In this document: positions 27,646 through 34,571 of the stretch, piece by piece | Position numbering within the stretch: the first letter of the stretch is position 1 | How the letters are laid out: each line of letters begins with the position of its first letter | Source of the DNA: Acinetobacter sp. ANC 4862 | Lineage (GTDB): Bacteria > Pseudomonadota > Gammaproteobacteria > Pseudomonadales > Moraxellaceae | Length of the DNA stretch: 64,000 bases | Direction: 5' to 3' | Assembly: GCF_004336635.1 (NCBI RefSeq) | Contig: NZ_SJXH01000005.1 | Coordinates: forward strand, 62,001-126,000 | Translations under genes and position numbers: made by a program | The notes under the pieces: generated by a model | Seen by the model: only the letters and a program-made list of their open reading frames with translations | Databases searched by the model: none | Told to the model about the DNA's origin: nothing

Positions 27646-28437
27646 ATGAACAACTTGCAATGGCTCGATGAAGTAAAATTTAACGAACAAGGTCTAATCC
27701 CTGCCATTGCACAGCATCATCAAAGCGGTCGTGTGCTCATGGTTGCATGGATGAACCGTGAAGCTTTAGCCTTAACTGCAGAAAAAAACCAGGCCGTTTA
27801 CTTCTCACGTTCACGTCAAAAATTGTGGCATAAAGGCGAAGAATCTGGTCATTTCCAAACCGTGCATGAAATCCGTTTAGACTGCGATGCAGACGTGATT
27901 GTGTTGCAAATTGAACAACATGGCGGCATTGCCTGTCATACCGGTCGTGAATCATGTTTCTATCGTAAACTCACACCAAATGGTTGGGAAATTGTCGATG
28001 CGCAATTGAAAGATCCAAGCCAGATTTATGCTGAAAAATCTGCCCATTCACACAATCCACATACGCTTGCCATGAATGCCTCAACGGCTCAATCTGAACA
28101 AGTGGAAGTGCTGGACTATTTAGGTCAGATGATGACCGAGCGCAAAGCGGCAGATCCTGACTCCTCTTATGTGGCGAAGTTGTATCACAAAGGCTTAAAC
28201 AAAATTTTAGAAAAAGTCGGTGAAGAAAGCATTGAAACCATCATCGCAGCGAAAGACTTTAAAGCTGAAGCGCATGAAGATAATAAAAATGACCTGATTT
28301 ATGAAGTGGCAGATTTATGGTTCCATACCATTGTCATGTTGGGCTATTTCGATCTTGAACCACAAGTGGTTTTAAACGAACTGGCACGTCGCCAAGGCTT
28401 ATCTGGATTGGTTGAAAAAGCCAATCGTCAACACTAA
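27646..28437 (+). CDS. hisI: HisIE, bifunctional phosphoribosyl-AMP cyclohydrolase / phosphoribosyl-ATP pyrophosphatase
   Basis: 263 residues. Catalyses steps 2 and 3 of histidine synthesis. The N-terminal HisI half has [26 protein letters not shown], the metal-binding [12 protein letters not shown], and [11 protein letters not shown] with zinc-binding cysteines. The C-terminal HisE half has [16 protein letters not shown] and [17 protein letters not shown]. Other his genes are not in the window, so the pathway is dispersed. A helicase gene starts 4 bp after the stop, which looks like an operon. Confidence 0.95.
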
Positions 28438-28441
28438 GCCA

Positions 28442-29953
28442 ATGACTGTGTCTAATTCGCAAAAACCGAGTGCAACCTATGAGCAAGCCATTGCCATAGA
28501 CAATGCACGTTTGGGCAAATCCTTTAAAGTGATTGCTTATGCCGGCACAGGTAAAACCACCACTTTAGAAATGATCAGTGATGCCATGCCCGAGCGGCGT
28601 GGCATGTATCTGGCGTTTAACAAAGCCATTGCATCAGAAGCACAAAGTAAATTTCATCGTGGTGTCGACTGTCGTACTTTTCACTCACTGGCTTTTCGTA
28701 GTGTGCCGCGTGGCGTGACCGATAAACTGCGTTTACCGCGTTTAAGTCCAAGTTTTATTGCCAAGGAATATCGACTGCAACCGATTACCCTGCGTCGTAT
28801 GATGGGTGGACGTTATGAAAAATATGTGATGATGCCGAGTCGTTTGGCGAGCTTGGTGGCGAATGCGGTCAGTTATTTCTGTTCGACCAGTTCACAATAT
28901 CCTGCGCCACGCCATCTACAAGCACCGAGCTGGTTGCATCCGGATGATATTGATGAGTTGCAAAAGCATCTTTATCCCGCGATTGAACGGCGCTGGTTAG
29001 AATCGATTGACCCCAATCATCAAGCCGGGATTGGTCATGATATTTACCTGAAACTTTGGGCTTTGTCTGAACCGAATATCCCAACAGATTATGTGTTGTT
29101 TGATGAAGCACAAGATGCCGACCCCCTGATGCTGGGAATTTTGCTTAGACAGCGTAATACCCAGGTGATTTATGTCGGTGATGCCCATCAACAGATTTAT
29201 GCCTGGCGCGGTGCGGTCAATGCCATGCAGCAATTGCCCTTGCCTGAATCCAGATTAACGACATCATTTCGTTTCGGTGAAGAAATTGCCTTAAATGCCA
29301 ATGCGATTTTGGGCGCCTTAAACGAAACCGTGCCACTATTGGGCAATCCGTATCTCAATTCAAAAGTAGTCAATAAACCGCATACCAAACAACGCGATGC
29401 GATTTTATGCCGTACCAATGCGCGGGCGATGGAGTTATTGCTTGCAGGTTTAGTGCATGGAGATAAAGTTAGTTTACAAGCCGATCATGTCAAGCTGAAC
29501 CGTTTTGTTGATGCCGCCAGCATGCTGAAACAAGGCAAACGAGTGACTGATGTGCCTGAACTGGCCTGGTTTAATTCATGGCATGACGTACATGAATATT
29601 GTGAAACCAATGACGGCAGTGACATTAAACCCTTGGTGAAACTGGTCGATGATCACGGTACCGATCCACTCAAAAGAGCCTTGGCGAAAATCACTCCGAT
29701 TGAACATGCCGACTACATTATCTCAACTGCACACAAAGCCAAAGGCTTGGAATGGGATCGTGTGCATATCGAAGATGACTATCAGTTTAAGGTCAATGAA
29801 AAAGACCATAAAATTAGTGACGAAGAGTTAAGATTGCTTTACGTTGCCTGCACACGTGCTAAAGTGAGTTTAAATATTCACCACATTTACGATTTGGTAC
29901 AGCAACTCAAAAAGCAAATGCCATTATCGTTGCGTAAAGCCGTGGGAGAATAA
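28442..29953 (+). CDS. UvrD/Rep-family superfamily 1 helicase
   Basis: 503 residues, compact SF1A helicase lacking the long inserts of UvrD or Rep. Motif I YAGTGKTTT (residues 33-41), motif II DEAQDADP (221-228), motif III GDAHQQIYAWRGA (246-258), motif V AHKAKGLEWD (430-439) and motif VI LLYVACTRAK (465-474) are all intact, so an active ATP-driven DNA translocase is expected. No nuclease domain is seen. ATG 28442 is preferred over an upstream in-frame TTG in hisIE. It starts 4 bp after hisIE; an ATPase gene follows 29 bp later. Specific role unknown. Confidence 0.88.
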   Translation: MTVSNSQKPSATYEQAIAIDNARLGKSFKVIAYAGTGKTTTLEMISDAMPERRGMYLAFNKAIASEAQSKFHRGVDCRTFHSLAFRSVPRGVTDKLRLPRLSPSFIAKEYRLQPITLRRMMGGRYEKYVMMPSRLASLVANAVSYFCSTSSQYPAPRHLQAPSWLHPDDIDELQKHLYPAIERRWLESIDPNHQAGIGHDIYLKLWALSEPNIPTDYVLFDEAQDADPLMLGILLRQRNTQVIYVGDAHQQIYAWRGAVNAMQQLPLPESRLTTSFRFGEEIALNANAILGALNETVPLLGNPYLNSKVVNKPHTKQRDAILCRTNARAMELLLAGLVHGDKVSLQADHVKLNRFVDAASMLKQGKRVTDVPELAWFNSWHDVHEYCETNDGSDIKPLVKLVDDHGTDPLKRALAKITPIEHADYIISTAHKAKGLEWDRVHIEDDYQFKVNEKDHKISDEELRLLYVACTRAKVSLNIHHIYDLVQQLKKQMPLSLRKAVGE

Positions 29954-29982
29954 TTCAGCTCATTTCGCAATGCAGGTGTTTT

Positions 29983-31350
29983 ATGAAAATCGAATCTGTT
30001 CAACTCAAACACGCCCTTCATTTTGCTGATCTCAAGCTGAAATTTAGTGATAAACCGATCACCCTGATTCTGGGTGATCAAAGCTCGGGTAAAACCGGCA
30101 TTTTAAAATTCACTTATCAAGCACTGACCTGGTTTGCAGCACGTTATAAAGACTTTCGTGCTGCCGGTGTAGTGATGCTTGATCAAGACATTATGTTCAC
30201 GCGCTTGCAATCCAAAATTGATATTCGGGTTCGAATTCCCAATGATATTGGCACTTTAACCGAAGCCAGTGAACCGCAAGACAAAGCACTTTCTTACTGT
30301 GATTGGCAGCTGTATAAAACCTTAAATAGTCATGGTATAGGCACCAGCAAAGCCGAGACCCAACAATTGGAAAACTTGGTCGAACTTTATCAAAATGCGA
30401 TCAAACATGATCAGCTGCAAGGCTTACCCTTAATTGCCTATTATCCTGCGGAACGCTTCGTCAATGAAATGAATATTCTGAGCAAGAATAATCCTATCAT
30501 TTTCCAGACCTCACACGCCTATGAAATTTCAACTATTCCTTACACTACCTTTAGCCGTTTTTTTGAGTGGTTTCGTGAAATCAGTGATATTGAAAATGCC
30601 CAGATTACCCAACTGTTTCAACAATTGCTGTCCAATCCATCCATCCAGAAAAACAAAGATAATGGCTTTCTGCAACAATTGGTCAATGCTCAAAAACAAA
30701 TGAACGCACCGAGCCTGGATGCGTTAAAACAAGCCTTAAGCACGGTCATTCCTGCTTTAGAAGAAATTTATATCCAATACCAGCCTAAATTACAGTTGAT
30801 GGTGAGCTATCAGAATAAAACCATGCTCTATCAACAATTGTCTAATAGCATTAAAAACTGGATCGCATTAGTGGGGGATATCGTGCGCCGCTTATGCTTG
30901 CTCAATCCAAACAGTTTATATCCATGCCTTGAAGGGGATGGAATTTTATTGATTGATGCAATTGACCACCAGCTCGATCAAAATACCTCGCAAGTGATTT
31001 TGCAACGCTTACATCAGGCATTTCCACAGCTACAGATTATTGCTACCGGCAATCGTAGTGAATTACTGGAACATGCAGCAGACTATCAATGTTTGAAACT
31101 GGAAAATAAACAGATCTTTGATATGCAGCTGCAACCTTTGCAAGACAAGTTTGACACGATTTATGAGAACCTGGTTTTTAACGAAGAAGTGATTGAAACC
31201 GATCCATTGCTTGAACCCGAATTAGAAAGCATCACCCCACAAAGCATCATGCAACAAATTCAACAGCATTTAAGTGCAGAACAACAAACTGAATTGCTTC
31301 ATTTATTGAATCAGCAGGATGATAGGTCTTCGCACCATCCCCTGCCATAA
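29983..31350 (+). CDS. AAA-family ATP-binding protein, degenerate catalytic motifs
   Basis: 455 residues, resembling COG3950/AAA_21 (SMC/ABC-like) ATPases. Walker A is intact at residues 31-38 (GDQSSGKT). The C-terminal half aligns by eye with the family pattern but differs at key places: the signature loop is LSNS (286-289) rather than LSDG; Walker B is ILLIDAID (321-328) with Ala at the catalytic Glu position; and the switch region is ATGNRS (354-359) rather than ATTHSP. It may bind but not hydrolyse ATP. No TOPRIM nuclease is visible. Located 29 bp after the helicase and probably co-transcribed. Function unknown. Confidence 0.8.
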   Translation: MKIESVQLKHALHFADLKLKFSDKPITLILGDQSSGKTGILKFTYQALTWFAARYKDFRAAGVVMLDQDIMFTRLQSKIDIRVRIPNDIGTLTEASEPQDKALSYCDWQLYKTLNSHGIGTSKAETQQLENLVELYQNAIKHDQLQGLPLIAYYPAERFVNEMNILSKNNPIIFQTSHAYEISTIPYTTFSRFFEWFREISDIENAQITQLFQQLLSNPSIQKNKDNGFLQQLVNAQKQMNAPSLDALKQALSTVIPALEEIYIQYQPKLQLMVSYQNKTMLYQQLSNSIKNWIALVGDIVRRLCLLNPNSLYPCLEGDGILLIDAIDHQLDQNTSQVILQRLHQAFPQLQIIATGNRSELLEHAADYQCLKLENKQIFDMQLQPLQDKFDTIYENLVFNEEVIETDPLLEPELESITPQSIMQQIQQHLSAEQQTELLHLLNQQDDRSSHHPLP

Positions 31351-31721
31351 CCCAAAAGATTGAATTTAATTACCAAACAGATTCGATATTTCAAAGCGCC
31401 ATTTTCAAGAATCATTTTTAAGTTTTCATCTGTCTAAACACTCGGCGCCTAGAAAGAATGGATGAGCGTATAATAGGTTAGCTGTGCGCAAAAATAATTG
31501 ATGTTGTTTTCTTCATGTAATAAGATCAAGTATATTTAAAGTTTTATAGTAAAATCCGATTTTACTATCGCTTTTTACAAGTTGCGCAACACAGCTTGTT
31601 TTTCCATATTTTTAATTTAATTTGGCTTTCAAGATTGAGAAGTTTGGATGGTTCTTTGCTGTCCTGTAGTCCTTGAAAGATAAGATTCACCCTTGGTTTT
31701 TTACCAACCTGATTCACGACA
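31351..31721. other. Intergenic region upstream of the Mrp operon
   Basis: 371 bases without a credible gene. The notable feature is the inverted repeat at 31546-31568 (own entry). The Mrp promoter is presumably here, giving a leader of 100 bases or more, but I could not fix -35 and -10 boxes. Confidence 0.5.
31546..31568. promoter_or_regulatory. Palindrome upstream of the Mrp antiporter operon
   Basis: ATAGTAAAAT - CCG - ATTTTACTAT, a perfect 10-bp inverted repeat, about 155 bp before mrpA. It could be an operator for Na+/pH-responsive control, or a weak terminator (CGCTTTTTA follows). Function is inference. Confidence 0.4.
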
Positions 31722-34571
31722 ATGGATATGAGTGTGCTACCGATTATTATATTGTTACCGTTAGTACTGGGCACAACCCTTGTCTCGTGGCTGAAGAAAT
31801 TTTCACGCGGGGTAACGGCTCTAGCGGCCATTGCAGTCAGTTTAAGCAGCCTGATCTTGTTACTGACTCAAGCAAAAGATGTCTTTAATGGCGGAACAAT
31901 CACCCAGACTTGGGCTTGGTTACCTCAATTAGGGATCGATTTAAGCTTCCGTATGGATGCCTTAGGCCTGCTGTTTTGTTTACTGATTAGCGGTATCGGT
32001 ACCCTCATTTATATTTATGCCTATTATTATTTAAGCCCTAAAAGTTCCCTAAGTAAATTGTATCTATTGCTGATGCTGTTCATGGCAGCCATGCTGGGGA
32101 TATCACTTTCCAATAATTTAATTTTATTGCTTATTTTTTGGGAACTCACCAGTATTTCCTCGTTCCTTTTGGTCGGTTACTGGAGTAATTACCAAGCTGC
32201 ACAACGCGGTTCACGGATGGCACTTACCATCACCGGGATGGGCGGTCTGTCGATGCTCGGTGGCTTTATTCTGCTCGGTCAAATTACAGGCACCTATCAG
32301 ATAGACCAAATTTTAACAATGAAGGATCAGATTCAAAGCCATTCGCTGTTTGTTCCCACCTTGCTGCTCATTCTAATGGGTGCCTTTACCAAAAGTGCCC
32401 AGTTCCCGTTCCATTTTTGGCTACCCAATGCCATGGCAGCCCCGACACCGGTATCCGCCTATCTGCATTCAGCGACTATGGTTAAAGCGGGGATTTTCCT
32501 GCTGGCACGTTTTACCCCCATTTTTGTCGGTGCAGCGCTTTATCATAATATTGTGACGTTTGTGGGGTTATTTACCCTGTGTATGGCAGCCTTTTTTGCC
32601 ATTTTTAAAGAAGATTTAAAAGGCTTACTCGCCTATTCCACCATCAGTCATTTAGGCTTGATTGTCTGCCTGTTGGGGATTGGATCACCGCTAGCGATTG
32701 CCGCAGCCATTTTCCATATCATTAATCATGCGACCTTTAAAGCAGCATTGTTCATGATTGCCGGAATCATTGACCATGAAACGGGAACCCGTGATTTACG
32801 CAAGTTAAACGGGATTTGGCAATTGCTGCCGTTTACTGCAACCCTGACCATGATCACTGCTGCCTCGATGGCGGGTGTACCCCTGACCAATGGATTCTTG
32901 TCCAAAGAGATGTTCTTTACTGAACTACTGGCCAATCTCTCTGGGCCAGTCATGATTTTCTCGGCGGTTATGGCAACACTGGCGGGAATCTTTGCGGTCG
33001 CCTATTCGGTGCGTTTGGTTCACGGGGTATTTTTCGATGGTCCGCTGGGACGACAAGTTCCCAATCAACATGCACATGAGCCGCCTTTTGGTATGCGTGC
33101 ACCCGCAGTTCTGCTTGCTGTTTTATGTATTTTAGTCGGTCTGGCACCTGCCCTTTTGGTTGAAAAAATTGTCAATTCAACTGCGCGTGCCAGCACTCAA
33201 CTCCCTGACTTTACCGGTGCACATTTAGCCATTTGGCATGGCTTCAATCTGCCTTTAGTGATGAGTATTATCGCGCTATGCGGTGGGGTGATTTTATATT
33301 TCGCTTTTGCCAAAAACGGTAAAATTCGCGAGATTGATTTAGATCTGAGCTTGGGACAATTCCAAGGCAGAATCTTATTTGACTTATTCCTCAAGCATCT
33401 GTTACTGAATTCACGCAAGTTCAAACGTAAAACTGAAAATGGTTCACTGCAAAGCTATTTAATGTGGATTGTGTTATTTAGTGCCGCTTTGCTAGCCATG
33501 CCACTGATCAATCAGGGACTCACCACAGGTACGCGTGAATTAACCCATGCGCCTGCGCTTGGCATTGTACTGTGGCTGTTATTATTCTCAGCCTGCTGGA
33601 TGATGTTGTGGTTCCACCATGAACGGATTAAAGCAGTGCTGATTAGTGGTGCTGTTGGTTTAGTGGTGACCATGGTTTTTGTGACCCTGTCTGCACCGGA
33701 TCTGGCTTTAACCCAGATTACCGTTGATGTGGTCACCACTGTACTCTTACTCATGAGCTTATCATTACTGCCACAGCTTACACCTTATGAGTCCAGTGTT
33801 TCACGTCGTTGGCGTGATGCGCTGATTGCCATTGGCGGTGGTCTCGGTATTGGCTGGATTAGCTGGTTAATCTTGACCCGTGACCACAACTCGATTTCAT
33901 GGTTCTTCATGCAGCAATCCATTCCACTGGGTGGCGGCACCAATGTGGTCAATGTGATTCTAGTCGACTTCCGTGGTTTCGATACCTTTGGTGAAATTAC
34001 TGTACTGGGTATTGCTGCCATTGGTGCCTTATGTTTAATGGATGGCATGCGTACCCACGGTACCACCATCACTCAAGGCTTGACCTACCGTTTTAATCCC
34101 TCTCCCTTGATGTTCAGGATTACCGCGTCTTGGGTTTTACCTTTGGCACTGGTGGTGAGCCTGTATATCTTCCTGCGCGGTCATAACTTGCCGGGTGGCG
34201 GATTTATCGCCGGCTTGATCACCGCTTTAGCTTTAATCATCCAATATATTGCCCTGGGTCAAGATCAAGCAGAACAAATGCTGAAAGCCAAATCCGGACG
34301 TTTATATGAAATCTGGATTGGTTCAGGTCTGGTCATTGCCGGACTGACTGGACTCGGTGCGTGGTTCTGGGGACGTCCATTCCTGACTAGCGCACACATT
34401 TACATCTCACCACCCATTTTAGGTGAAATCCACCTGGCGTCTGCTGCCTTATTTGATGTCGGGGTCTATGTCACCGTTGTTGGTGCAACCATGCTGATGA
34501 TCTCGGTCTTAGGCGACTCACGTCACTCCAGTATGGCTGGTCCGGTGCTCAAGGGAGAAGAAAATGATTAG
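31722..34571 (+). CDS. mrpA: Mrp-type Na+/H+ antiporter subunit A (A+B fusion)
   Basis: 949 residues, many membrane helices. Largest subunit of the multi-subunit Mrp (Mnh/Sha) cation:proton antiporter, homologous to NuoL. The proton channel region includes GYWSNYQAAQRGSRMALT, AQFPFHFWLPNAMAAPTPVS and LLAYSTISHLGLIV. The C-terminal roughly 150 residues (FRITASWVLPLALVVSLYIF, HNLPGGGFIAGLITALALI) correspond to subunit B, so MrpB is fused here; no separate mrpB follows. ATG 31722 and ATG 31728 are both possible and neither has a strong ribosome binding site. Overlaps mrpC by 8 bp. Confidence 0.93.
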   Translation: MDMSVLPIIILLPLVLGTTLVSWLKKFSRGVTALAAIAVSLSSLILLLTQAKDVFNGGTITQTWAWLPQLGIDLSFRMDALGLLFCLLISGIGTLIYIYAYYYLSPKSSLSKLYLLLMLFMAAMLGISLSNNLILLLIFWELTSISSFLLVGYWSNYQAAQRGSRMALTITGMGGLSMLGGFILLGQITGTYQIDQILTMKDQIQSHSLFVPTLLLILMGAFTKSAQFPFHFWLPNAMAAPTPVSAYLHSATMVKAGIFLLARFTPIFVGAALYHNIVTFVGLFTLCMAAFFAIFKEDLKGLLAYSTISHLGLIVCLLGIGSPLAIAAAIFHIINHATFKAALFMIAGIIDHETGTRDLRKLNGIWQLLPFTATLTMITAASMAGVPLTNGFLSKEMFFTELLANLSGPVMIFSAVMATLAGIFAVAYSVRLVHGVFFDGPLGRQVPNQHAHEPPFGMRAPAVLLAVLCILVGLAPALLVEKIVNSTARASTQLPDFTGAHLAIWHGFNLPLVMSIIALCGGVILYFAFAKNGKIREIDLDLSLGQFQGRILFDLFLKHLLLNSRKFKRKTENGSLQSYLMWIVLFSAALLAMPLINQGLTTGTRELTHAPALGIVLWLLLFSACWMMLWFHHERIKAVLISGAVGLVVTMVFVTLSAPDLALTQITVDVVTTVLLLMSLSLLPQLTPYESSVSRRWRDALIAIGGGLGIGWISWLILTRDHNSISWFFMQQSIPLGGGTNVVNVILVDFRGFDTFGEITVLGIAAIGALCLMDGMRTHGTTITQGLTYRFNPSPLMFRITASWVLPLALVVSLYIFLRGHNLPGGGFIAGLITALALIIQYIALGQDQAEQMLKAKSGRLYEIWIGSGLVIAGLTGLGAWFWGRPFLTSAHIYISPPILGEIHLASAALFDVGVYVTVVGATMLMISVLGDSRHSSMAGPVLKGEEND

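What the first reader, a model, noticed from the sequence alone, without database searches (positions are those of the whole stretch)
28442..31350. UvrD-like helicase paired with an AAA ATPase that has lost its catalytic residues
Two genes of unknown role follow hisIE at 4 bp and 29 bp. The helicase has all SF1 motifs. The ATPase keeps Walker A (31-38) but has Ala326 where the Walker B Glu is expected, LSNS instead of LSDG, and ATGNRS instead of ATTHSP. That pattern suggests an ATP-binding switch or scaffold rather than an active ATPase. ATPase plus UvrD helicase recalls the GajA/GajB pair of Gabija, but no TOPRIM nuclease is present, so it is not Gabija. It may be a repair or defence pair not yet described.
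Basis: partly seen in the sequence, partly recalled or inferred. Interest (0 to 1): 0.6.

Follow-up and report, generated by a model that had tools for sequence, protein, structure and literature searches.

The report
Catalytically degenerate PtuA-like ATPase beside helicase
Across the bacterial genus Acinetobacter, a gene descended from an anti-phage ATPase has lost the residues for splitting ATP but kept those for holding it, and sits beside a conserved DNA helicase, so it looks like a former defence part put to a new, still unknown use.

Summary
The ATPase (29983-31350) is not Gabija GajA; by sequence and predicted fold it belongs to the PtuA family (ATPase of Septu and type I-A retrons). 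In 140 intact copies from the genus, Walker A lysine and Walker B aspartate are kept in 140; the catalytic Glu is present in 7, the signature Gly in 0, the switch His in 1. The 25 relatives read outside this locus are canonical in the motifs they cover, and 8 of 10 neighbours tested are the nuclease PtuB. The locus copies form one group, share one site (hisIE - helicase - ATPase - mnhA), have no PtuB beside them in the loci read, are under purifying selection (median dN/dS 0.065) and carry 15 derived near-invariant residues. The helicase is closest to eukaryotic helicase FBH1, not GajB, and was found in 175 of 175 genomes. It persists where the ATPase is absent, so any partnership is accessory and unproven. 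Best reading: a Septu ATPase captured early in Acinetobacter, now a nucleotide-binding, probably non-hydrolysing clamp or switch, plausibly acting with the helicase.

The parts
27646..28437 (+). hisIE, upstream neighbour, 4 bp before the helicase
   Evidence: Pfam PRA-CH and PRA-PH
28442..29953 (+). FBH1-like SF1 (UvrD-family) helicase, 503 aa, found in every genome of the genus searched
   Evidence: PHROG 1967, 1.7e-99; FBH1, PDB 9xzj; 175 of 175 genomes
29983..31350 (+). PtuA-family ATPase with degenerate catalytic motifs, 455 aa
30073..30096 (+). Walker A GDQSSGKT (residues 31-38); Gly36 and Lys37 in 140 of 140; Gln33 derived
30838..30849 (+). degenerate signature LSNS (residues 286-289); canonical relatives have (L/F)S(Q/D)G
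30955..30960 (+). Walker B Asp325 (140 of 140) and Ala326 in place of the catalytic Glu
30976..30978 (+). Asp332, derived invariant residue (140 of 140; His in 25 of 25 canonical relatives)
31042..31059 (+). degenerate H-switch ATGNRS (residues 354-359); canonical (T/S)THS
31577..31599 (+). terminator-like hairpin with T tail after the ATPase (consensus match only; 6 found in the region, 4.1 expected)
31722..34571 (+). mnhA antiporter subunit, downstream neighbour; marks the other side of the insertion site
   Evidence: product name from an A. baumannii record

Best explanation
A PtuA ATPase of the Septu kind entered the gap between the FBH1-like helicase gene and mnhA early in Acinetobacter, came to stand without a PtuB nuclease, and lost the residues of ATP hydrolysis (catalytic Glu, signature Gly, switch His) while keeping the nucleotide pocket. 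It now works as an ATP-binding, probably non-hydrolysing dimer or oligomer: a clamp, scaffold or ATP-level switch. It most likely acts on the same DNA structures as, or directly on, the co-directional helicase, whose eukaryotic relative FBH1 removes the recombinase Rad51 from single-stranded DNA. Shown: family and predicted fold, genus-wide motif loss with the pocket kept, purifying selection, no PtuB beside it, shared site. Inferred: early single capture, former presence of PtuB, ATP binding without hydrolysis, oligomerisation, and the link to the helicase and to recombination.
For: Family: PADLOC PtuA 1.3e-56 over residues 1-440; NCBIfam PtuA 7.6e-42, 143.9 bits against a cut-off of 500; AlphaFold model pLDDT 81.6, pTM 0.78; all 50 Foldseek rows listed are chains of Septu or type I-A retron structures; best Z 37.0, 324 residues at 2.2 A, first other family (PARIS AriA) Z 19.6. 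Motif census, 140 intact locus copies against 20 canonical: Lys37 140, Asp325 140, Glu326 7 (Q62 A46 H10 N9 D4 G2), signature Gly 0, His357 1; canonical 20 of 20 for the last three. Canonical copies lie on one side of one branch, support 100; 22 changes at position 326 among locus copies; the deepest branch has D/E, later ones Q, A, N, H. 259 pairs: median dN/dS 0.065, maximum 0.245; helicase 0.016. 15 derived near-invariant residues. No hit of the PtuB model in the window's genome, 3 of 175 in the genus. One strand and order in 142 of 142, gap 12-123 bp in 139, median 28. Precedent for defence by ATP binding without detectable hydrolysis: retron-Eco8 OLD (PMC12887533, passages). Fission yeast Fbh1 removes Rad51 (PMC4148199, passages).
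Against: The helicase is kept where the ATPase is absent or broken, so it does not need it. If all copies descend from one insertion into a stable locus, adjacency is partly plain inheritance. In one genome an insertion element separates the genes and the ATPase stays open (L155). The ATPase changes faster than the helicase and is absent or broken in scattered places (12 changes of presence on the helicase tree). Seven copies carry Glu326. Helicase dN against a common third sequence was clearly higher than in the nearest ATPase-bearing relative for L070, L072 and L073, slightly higher for L069 and L074 and about equal for the other five, but the nearest relatives are far (dS 0.9-1.5) in all five higher cases: inconclusive. 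ATP binding, oligomer state and contact with the helicase were not tested.
Confidence: 0.45

Rival explanations
1. The degenerate PtuA works alone or with an unlinked partner (for example as a defence sensor, nucleotide sensor or DNA-end clamp) and sits next to the helicase only because that is where it inserted.
For: One insertion can explain all adjacency; the helicase is independent of it; faster evolution and scattered loss fit an accessory role; an insertion between the genes is tolerated in L155.
Against: Order and strand kept in 142 of 142 loci, gap 12-123 bp in 139; a consensus scan shows no + strand promoter-like site from 27300 up to 30217, that is none ahead of the ATPase (weak evidence).
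Confidence: 0.32
2. A defence pair: helicase and ATPase together act against phages, in the manner of Gabija but without TOPRIM.
For: The ATPase descends from a defence family, and some canonical copies lie beside a type I restriction gene (L092) or an integrase (L106). Scattered loss is typical of defence genes.
Against: No nuclease domain in either protein in the Pfam scan; the helicase is a slowly evolving gene kept without the ATPase; shared chromosomal site. The held main text of one A. baumannii phage Tn-seq paper does not contain helicase, Septu or ATP-binding protein (PMC10249906, term search; supplements not read).
Confidence: 0.1
3. The ATPase is still catalytic through substitute residues, for example the derived Asp332 or the kept acid at 328.
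For: Asp332 is in 140 of 140 and derived (His in 25 of 25 canonical); position 328 is D or E in 140 of 140; seven copies have Glu326.
Against: The signature Gly and switch His are gone as well (0 and 1 of 140), and position 326 changes 22 times among Q, A, H, N, E, D and G.
Confidence: 0.1
4. A decaying pseudogene without function.
For: Absence in 21 of 175 genomes and broken copies or remnants (L065, L074, L075, L076, L088).
Against: Open in 140 of 143 loci with a match of at least 250 aa; median dN/dS 0.065; 67 near-invariant positions, 15 of them derived.
Confidence: 0.03

Closest known systems
PtuA of Septu and of type I-A retrons (Ec78/Eco7, Ec83)
   Same: Sequence family and predicted fold over residues 1 to about 390; Walker A Lys and Walker B Asp
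   Different: No PtuB or reverse transcriptase beside it; catalytic Glu, signature Gly and switch His lost; C-terminal tail poorly conserved and unlike the canonical one; shared core locus beside a helicase
FBH1 (F-box DNA helicase 1)
   Same: Helicase core aligned over profile positions 3-480 of 498, E 1.3e-62
   Different: No F-box; bacterial; activity on RecA filaments untested
Gabija GajA/GajB
   Same: ATPase gene beside a UvrD-family helicase gene
   Different: No TOPRIM; ATPase is PtuA-type; helicase matches GajB structures only over one short stretch; helicase gene comes first here (order in Gabija recalled)
PHROG 1967 phage helicases
   Same: Helicase match 1.7e-99 over residues 12-492; phage copies listed are about 34-37% identical
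   Different: Phage-borne; the only phage records matched by both helicase and ATPase are the two MD-2021a records, probably host DNA
S. aureus PcdA, a protein co-opted from a phage restriction system (PMC10602043, search listing only)
   Same: Precedent for co-option of a defence-type protein to a cellular role
   Different: Different family and function

Membership tests
Septu / PtuAB | PtuA-type ATPase by sequence and fold | tested here: met
   (below the NCBIfam cut-off)
Septu / PtuAB | PtuB HNH nuclease gene beside PtuA | tested here: not met
   Neighbours are the helicase and mnhA; no hit of the PtuB model PDLC00344 in the own genome
Septu / PtuAB | Intact ATPase catalytic motifs (Glu, signature Gly, His) | tested here: not met
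   7, 0 and 1 of 140 locus copies; 20 of 20 canonical
Retron type I-A | Reverse transcriptase and ncRNA beside the ATPase | tested here: not met
   Neighbouring genes are hisIE, helicase and mnhA; ncRNA not searched
Gabija | GajA with C-terminal TOPRIM nuclease | tested here: not met
   No TOPRIM in Pfam scan at E up to 1; no GajA among the 24 PDB sequence matches
Gabija | GajB-type UvrD helicase | tested here: inconclusive
   Short stretch matches GajB (1.2e-9), FBH1 matches nearly end to end (1.3e-62); best PADLOC GajB model 8e-16, behind RTasHel 1.3e-16
FBH1 helicases | FBH1-type helicase core | tested here: met
FBH1 helicases | F-box | tested here: not met
   Match starts at residue 366-371 of the 972-residue FBH1 chain; no F-box in Pfam scan
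FBH1 helicases | Removal of recombinase from ssDNA | not testable with these tools
   bench assay needed
Pseudo-ATPase | Catalytic residues lost across the clade, pocket kept, purifying selection | tested here: met
   exceptions: Glu326 in 7 of 140
Pseudo-ATPase | Binds but does not hydrolyse ATP | not testable with these tools
   bench assay needed

The most novel reading that the evidence does not exclude
A defence ATPase (Septu PtuA) was domesticated early in Acinetobacter into a catalytically dead, ATP-locked regulator of a bacterial FBH1-type anti-recombinase helicase, tuning RecA-dependent recombination (repair and natural transformation) across the genus.
Probability: 0.25. Interest if true: 0.78.

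Novelty: new variant of a known kind. Interest (0 to 1): 0.52.

Why it matters
It is a densely sampled case of a defence effector ATPase that became a pseudo-enzyme kept at one chromosomal site through most of a genus of medical and biotechnological interest, with a record of which active-site residues went and which new residues became fixed. It predicts that a PtuA can work by ATP binding alone. It also points to an FBH1-like helicase found in every Acinetobacter genome searched, on which no study was recognised in the listings seen here.

Tried and rejected
Gabija: rejected (no TOPRIM, PtuA-type ATPase). No GajA chain appears among the 50 entries listed (by itself this tells nothing). Single-strain decay: rejected. 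Pseudogene: rejected for the genus. Allele exchange of the ATPase alone between species: synonymous divergence of ATPase and helicase is about equal (median ratio 1.06 over 60 pairs), so no general sign, although single pairs scatter. Relaxed helicase evolution after ATPase loss: inconclusive. Degenerate relatives outside the locus: none seen. Of 20 distant ATPases read, 16 lie in other genera of the family and 4 in Acinetobacter outside the locus; all are canonical where the motif is covered (L093 lacks its start), and the helicase was not found beside any within the stretches fetched. Five hits in 4 other genomes of the class (321 sampled, E up to 1e-30) are canonical too. Phage and plasmid collections: the near matches are two 'Acinetobacter phage' records and large 'plasmid' records that look like chromosome pieces. 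Literature: no paper on this gene pair was recognised among the rows listed (most listings show only part of the papers found, e.g. 15 of 798); three Tn-seq papers were term-searched in their main text only.

The 140 intact copies come from 140 of the 154 genomes with a match; 3 more are broken copies, 2 (G049, G168) have only remnants at the locus (G168 also has a separate canonical copy), and 9 (G006, G016, G021, G037, G061, G069, G095, G101, G150) were not fetched. One search used one PtuB model at E up to 1e-10, which misses the PtuB type of L107 and L108 (2e-9). Trees are FastTree trees with many weak forks; the group of 11 helicase-only loci has support 26.

Full report
What is there. 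The window holds hisIE (27646-28437), a 503-aa helicase (28442-29953), a 455-aa ATPase (29983-31350) and mnhA (31722-34571), all on the + strand.

The ATPase. Pfam gives AAA_23 above its cut-off and AAA_15 below. PADLOC gives PtuA models as the best matches (1.3e-56 over residues 1-440), and NCBIfam gives the retron Ec78 PtuA model at 7.6e-42, far below its 500-bit cut-off. The closest solved sequences are retron Ec83 and Ec78 ATPases, with Septu PtuA further down. An AlphaFold model from 41 genus sequences has mean pLDDT 81.6 and pTM 0.78. All 50 Foldseek rows listed are chains of Septu or type I-A retron structures. A second alignment gives Z 37.0 with 324 residues at 2.2 A for a retron-Eco7 chain; the first other entry (AriA of PARIS) comes at Z 19.6.

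Distribution. In 175 genomes of the genus the helicase was found in 175 and the ATPase in 154; two of the 154 (G049, G168) have only weak matches, with remnants at the locus. Named species in a separate collection include A. terrae, A. terrestris, A. kookii, A. lwoffii, A. pittii, A. calcoaceticus and A. nosocomialis, A. terrae being nearest at 94% (best 80 of 214 loci, one titled only Moraxellaceae bacterium). A named A. baumannii record has the same order hisIE - helicase - ATPase - mnhA. I examined 170 loci by script: 143 have an ATPase match of at least 250 aa, 140 of them intact and 3 broken. All 142 with both genes have them on one strand, median gap 28 bp, 12-123 bp in 139; three have longer gaps (377; 622 in a broken copy; 1913 with an inserted element). 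In other genera of the family the helicase occurs at about 59-72% identity in the rows listed, without the ATPase beside it in the eight loci read.

Active site. Over 140 intact copies: Gly36 and Lys37 140, Asp325 140, Asp or Glu at 328 140; catalytic Glu at 326 only 7 (Gln 62, Ala 46, His 10, Asn 9, Asp 4, Gly 2); signature Gly 0; switch His 1. Twenty relatives outside the locus have Glu, Gly and His in 20 of 20, and five more from the class are canonical too. Fifteen positions are near-invariant (at least 137 of 140) in the locus copies and rare (at most 10%) in the 25 canonical ones, among them Gln33 and Asp332. So the pocket is kept, the known catalytic residues are lost and new residues are fixed.

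History. With the motif columns left out of the tree, the canonical copies lie on one side of one branch (support 100), so the locus copies are one clade if the root lies among the canonical ones; position 326 changes 22 times among them. The deepest branch holds Asp or Glu, the next ones Gln and Ala; Glu in L015, L131/L134 and L153/L159 lies inside non-Glu groups. Against the helicase tree, presence of an intact ATPase needs 12 changes: most simply one early gain and repeated loss, though the count alone cannot tell gain from loss. Eleven helicase-only loci form one weakly supported group near the base.

Selection. For 259 pairs with helicase dS 0.08-0.9, median dN/dS is 0.065 for the ATPase (maximum 0.245) and 0.016 for the helicase. 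The ATPase is constrained but changes about four times faster at the protein level; synonymous divergence is alike.

Origin. Of ten neighbours of distant canonical copies tested, eight are PtuB, one is a DUF1016/PDC-S02 protein and one gave nothing (for that locus PtuB pieces were found). L092 lies beside a type I restriction gene and L106 beside an integrase. The PtuB model hits 3 of 175 genomes of the genus and not the window's (one model, so a lower bound). The C-terminal part (376-455) is the least conserved in the locus copies (0.42 against 0.58-0.64 in canonical ones), as one would expect if the tail no longer serves the old partner; that this tail binds PtuB is recalled, not tested.

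The helicase. A single-sequence search matches F-box DNA helicase 1 (9xzj) at 1.6e-43 and UvrD at 4e-4; a profile gives 1.3e-62 over nearly its full length for FBH1, against 1e-10 to 1e-9 over short stretches for PcrA, GajB and UvrD. Eight motif blocks are nearly invariant, but for one position, in 169 of 169. Fission yeast Fbh1 removes Rad51 from ssDNA through its translocase activity (PMC4148199, passages). I recognised no paper on a bacterial FBH1-like helicase in the listings (15 of 798 shown; 4 of 4).

How it most likely works. Retron-Eco8 OLD binds ATP, showed no detectable ATPase activity, cuts DNA independently of hydrolysis, and loses defence when ATP-binding residues are changed (PMC12887533, passages). 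By analogy, a PtuA that keeps only the binding half could form an ATP-bound dimer or oligomer that clamps DNA or holds a partner. The natural candidate is the adjacent helicase. This last step is inference: the helicase stands without any ATPase match in 21 of 175 genomes, and one insertion can explain the shared site. A comparison of helicase change in loci with and without the ATPase was inconclusive.

Verdict. Novelty: new variant of a known kind (a domesticated, degenerate PtuA).

Noticed in passing
L155:2329-4090: Two reading frames that look like TnpB (- strand) and TnpA (+ strand) of an IS200/IS605 element (named from recalled motifs, no family search) lie between helicase and ATPase; both host genes stay open.
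   Followed up: partly
L089:3761-9001, L090:1-4814, L091:1-5246, L092:4341-9501, L093:1-4971: In five loci of one other genus a canonical ptuA is followed by a gene of about 200-230 aa (tested in L089 and L090: PtuB) and a gene of 914 aa or more (cut by the stretch end in most; tested in L092: type I restriction subunit R)..
   Followed up: partly
L104:3636-5482: A canonical PtuA-like ATPase is preceded by a DUF1016/YhcG-type protein (PADLOC PDC-S02).
   Followed up: partly
phage records CAKLQF020000005.1 and CAKLQH020000005.1: The 'Acinetobacter phage MD-2021a' records of about 220 kb hold a helicase and ATPase like these side by side; probably host chromosome pieces.
   Followed up: no
L129 (CP035931.1, A. 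baumannii VB31459): hisIE and the helicase are each split into two frames while the ATPase is open; possibly sequencing errors. The 1.02-Mb record is labelled plasmid but carries this chromosomal locus.
   Followed up: no
L122:3449-4528, L124:2641-3720, L123:3012-3971, L126:3609-5810: In four loci without the ATPase other genes follow the helicase: class II aldolase (L122, L124), dihydrouridine synthase (L123), TonB receptor (L126); in the first three they lie between helicase and mnhA, so this spot accepts insertions.
   Followed up: yes
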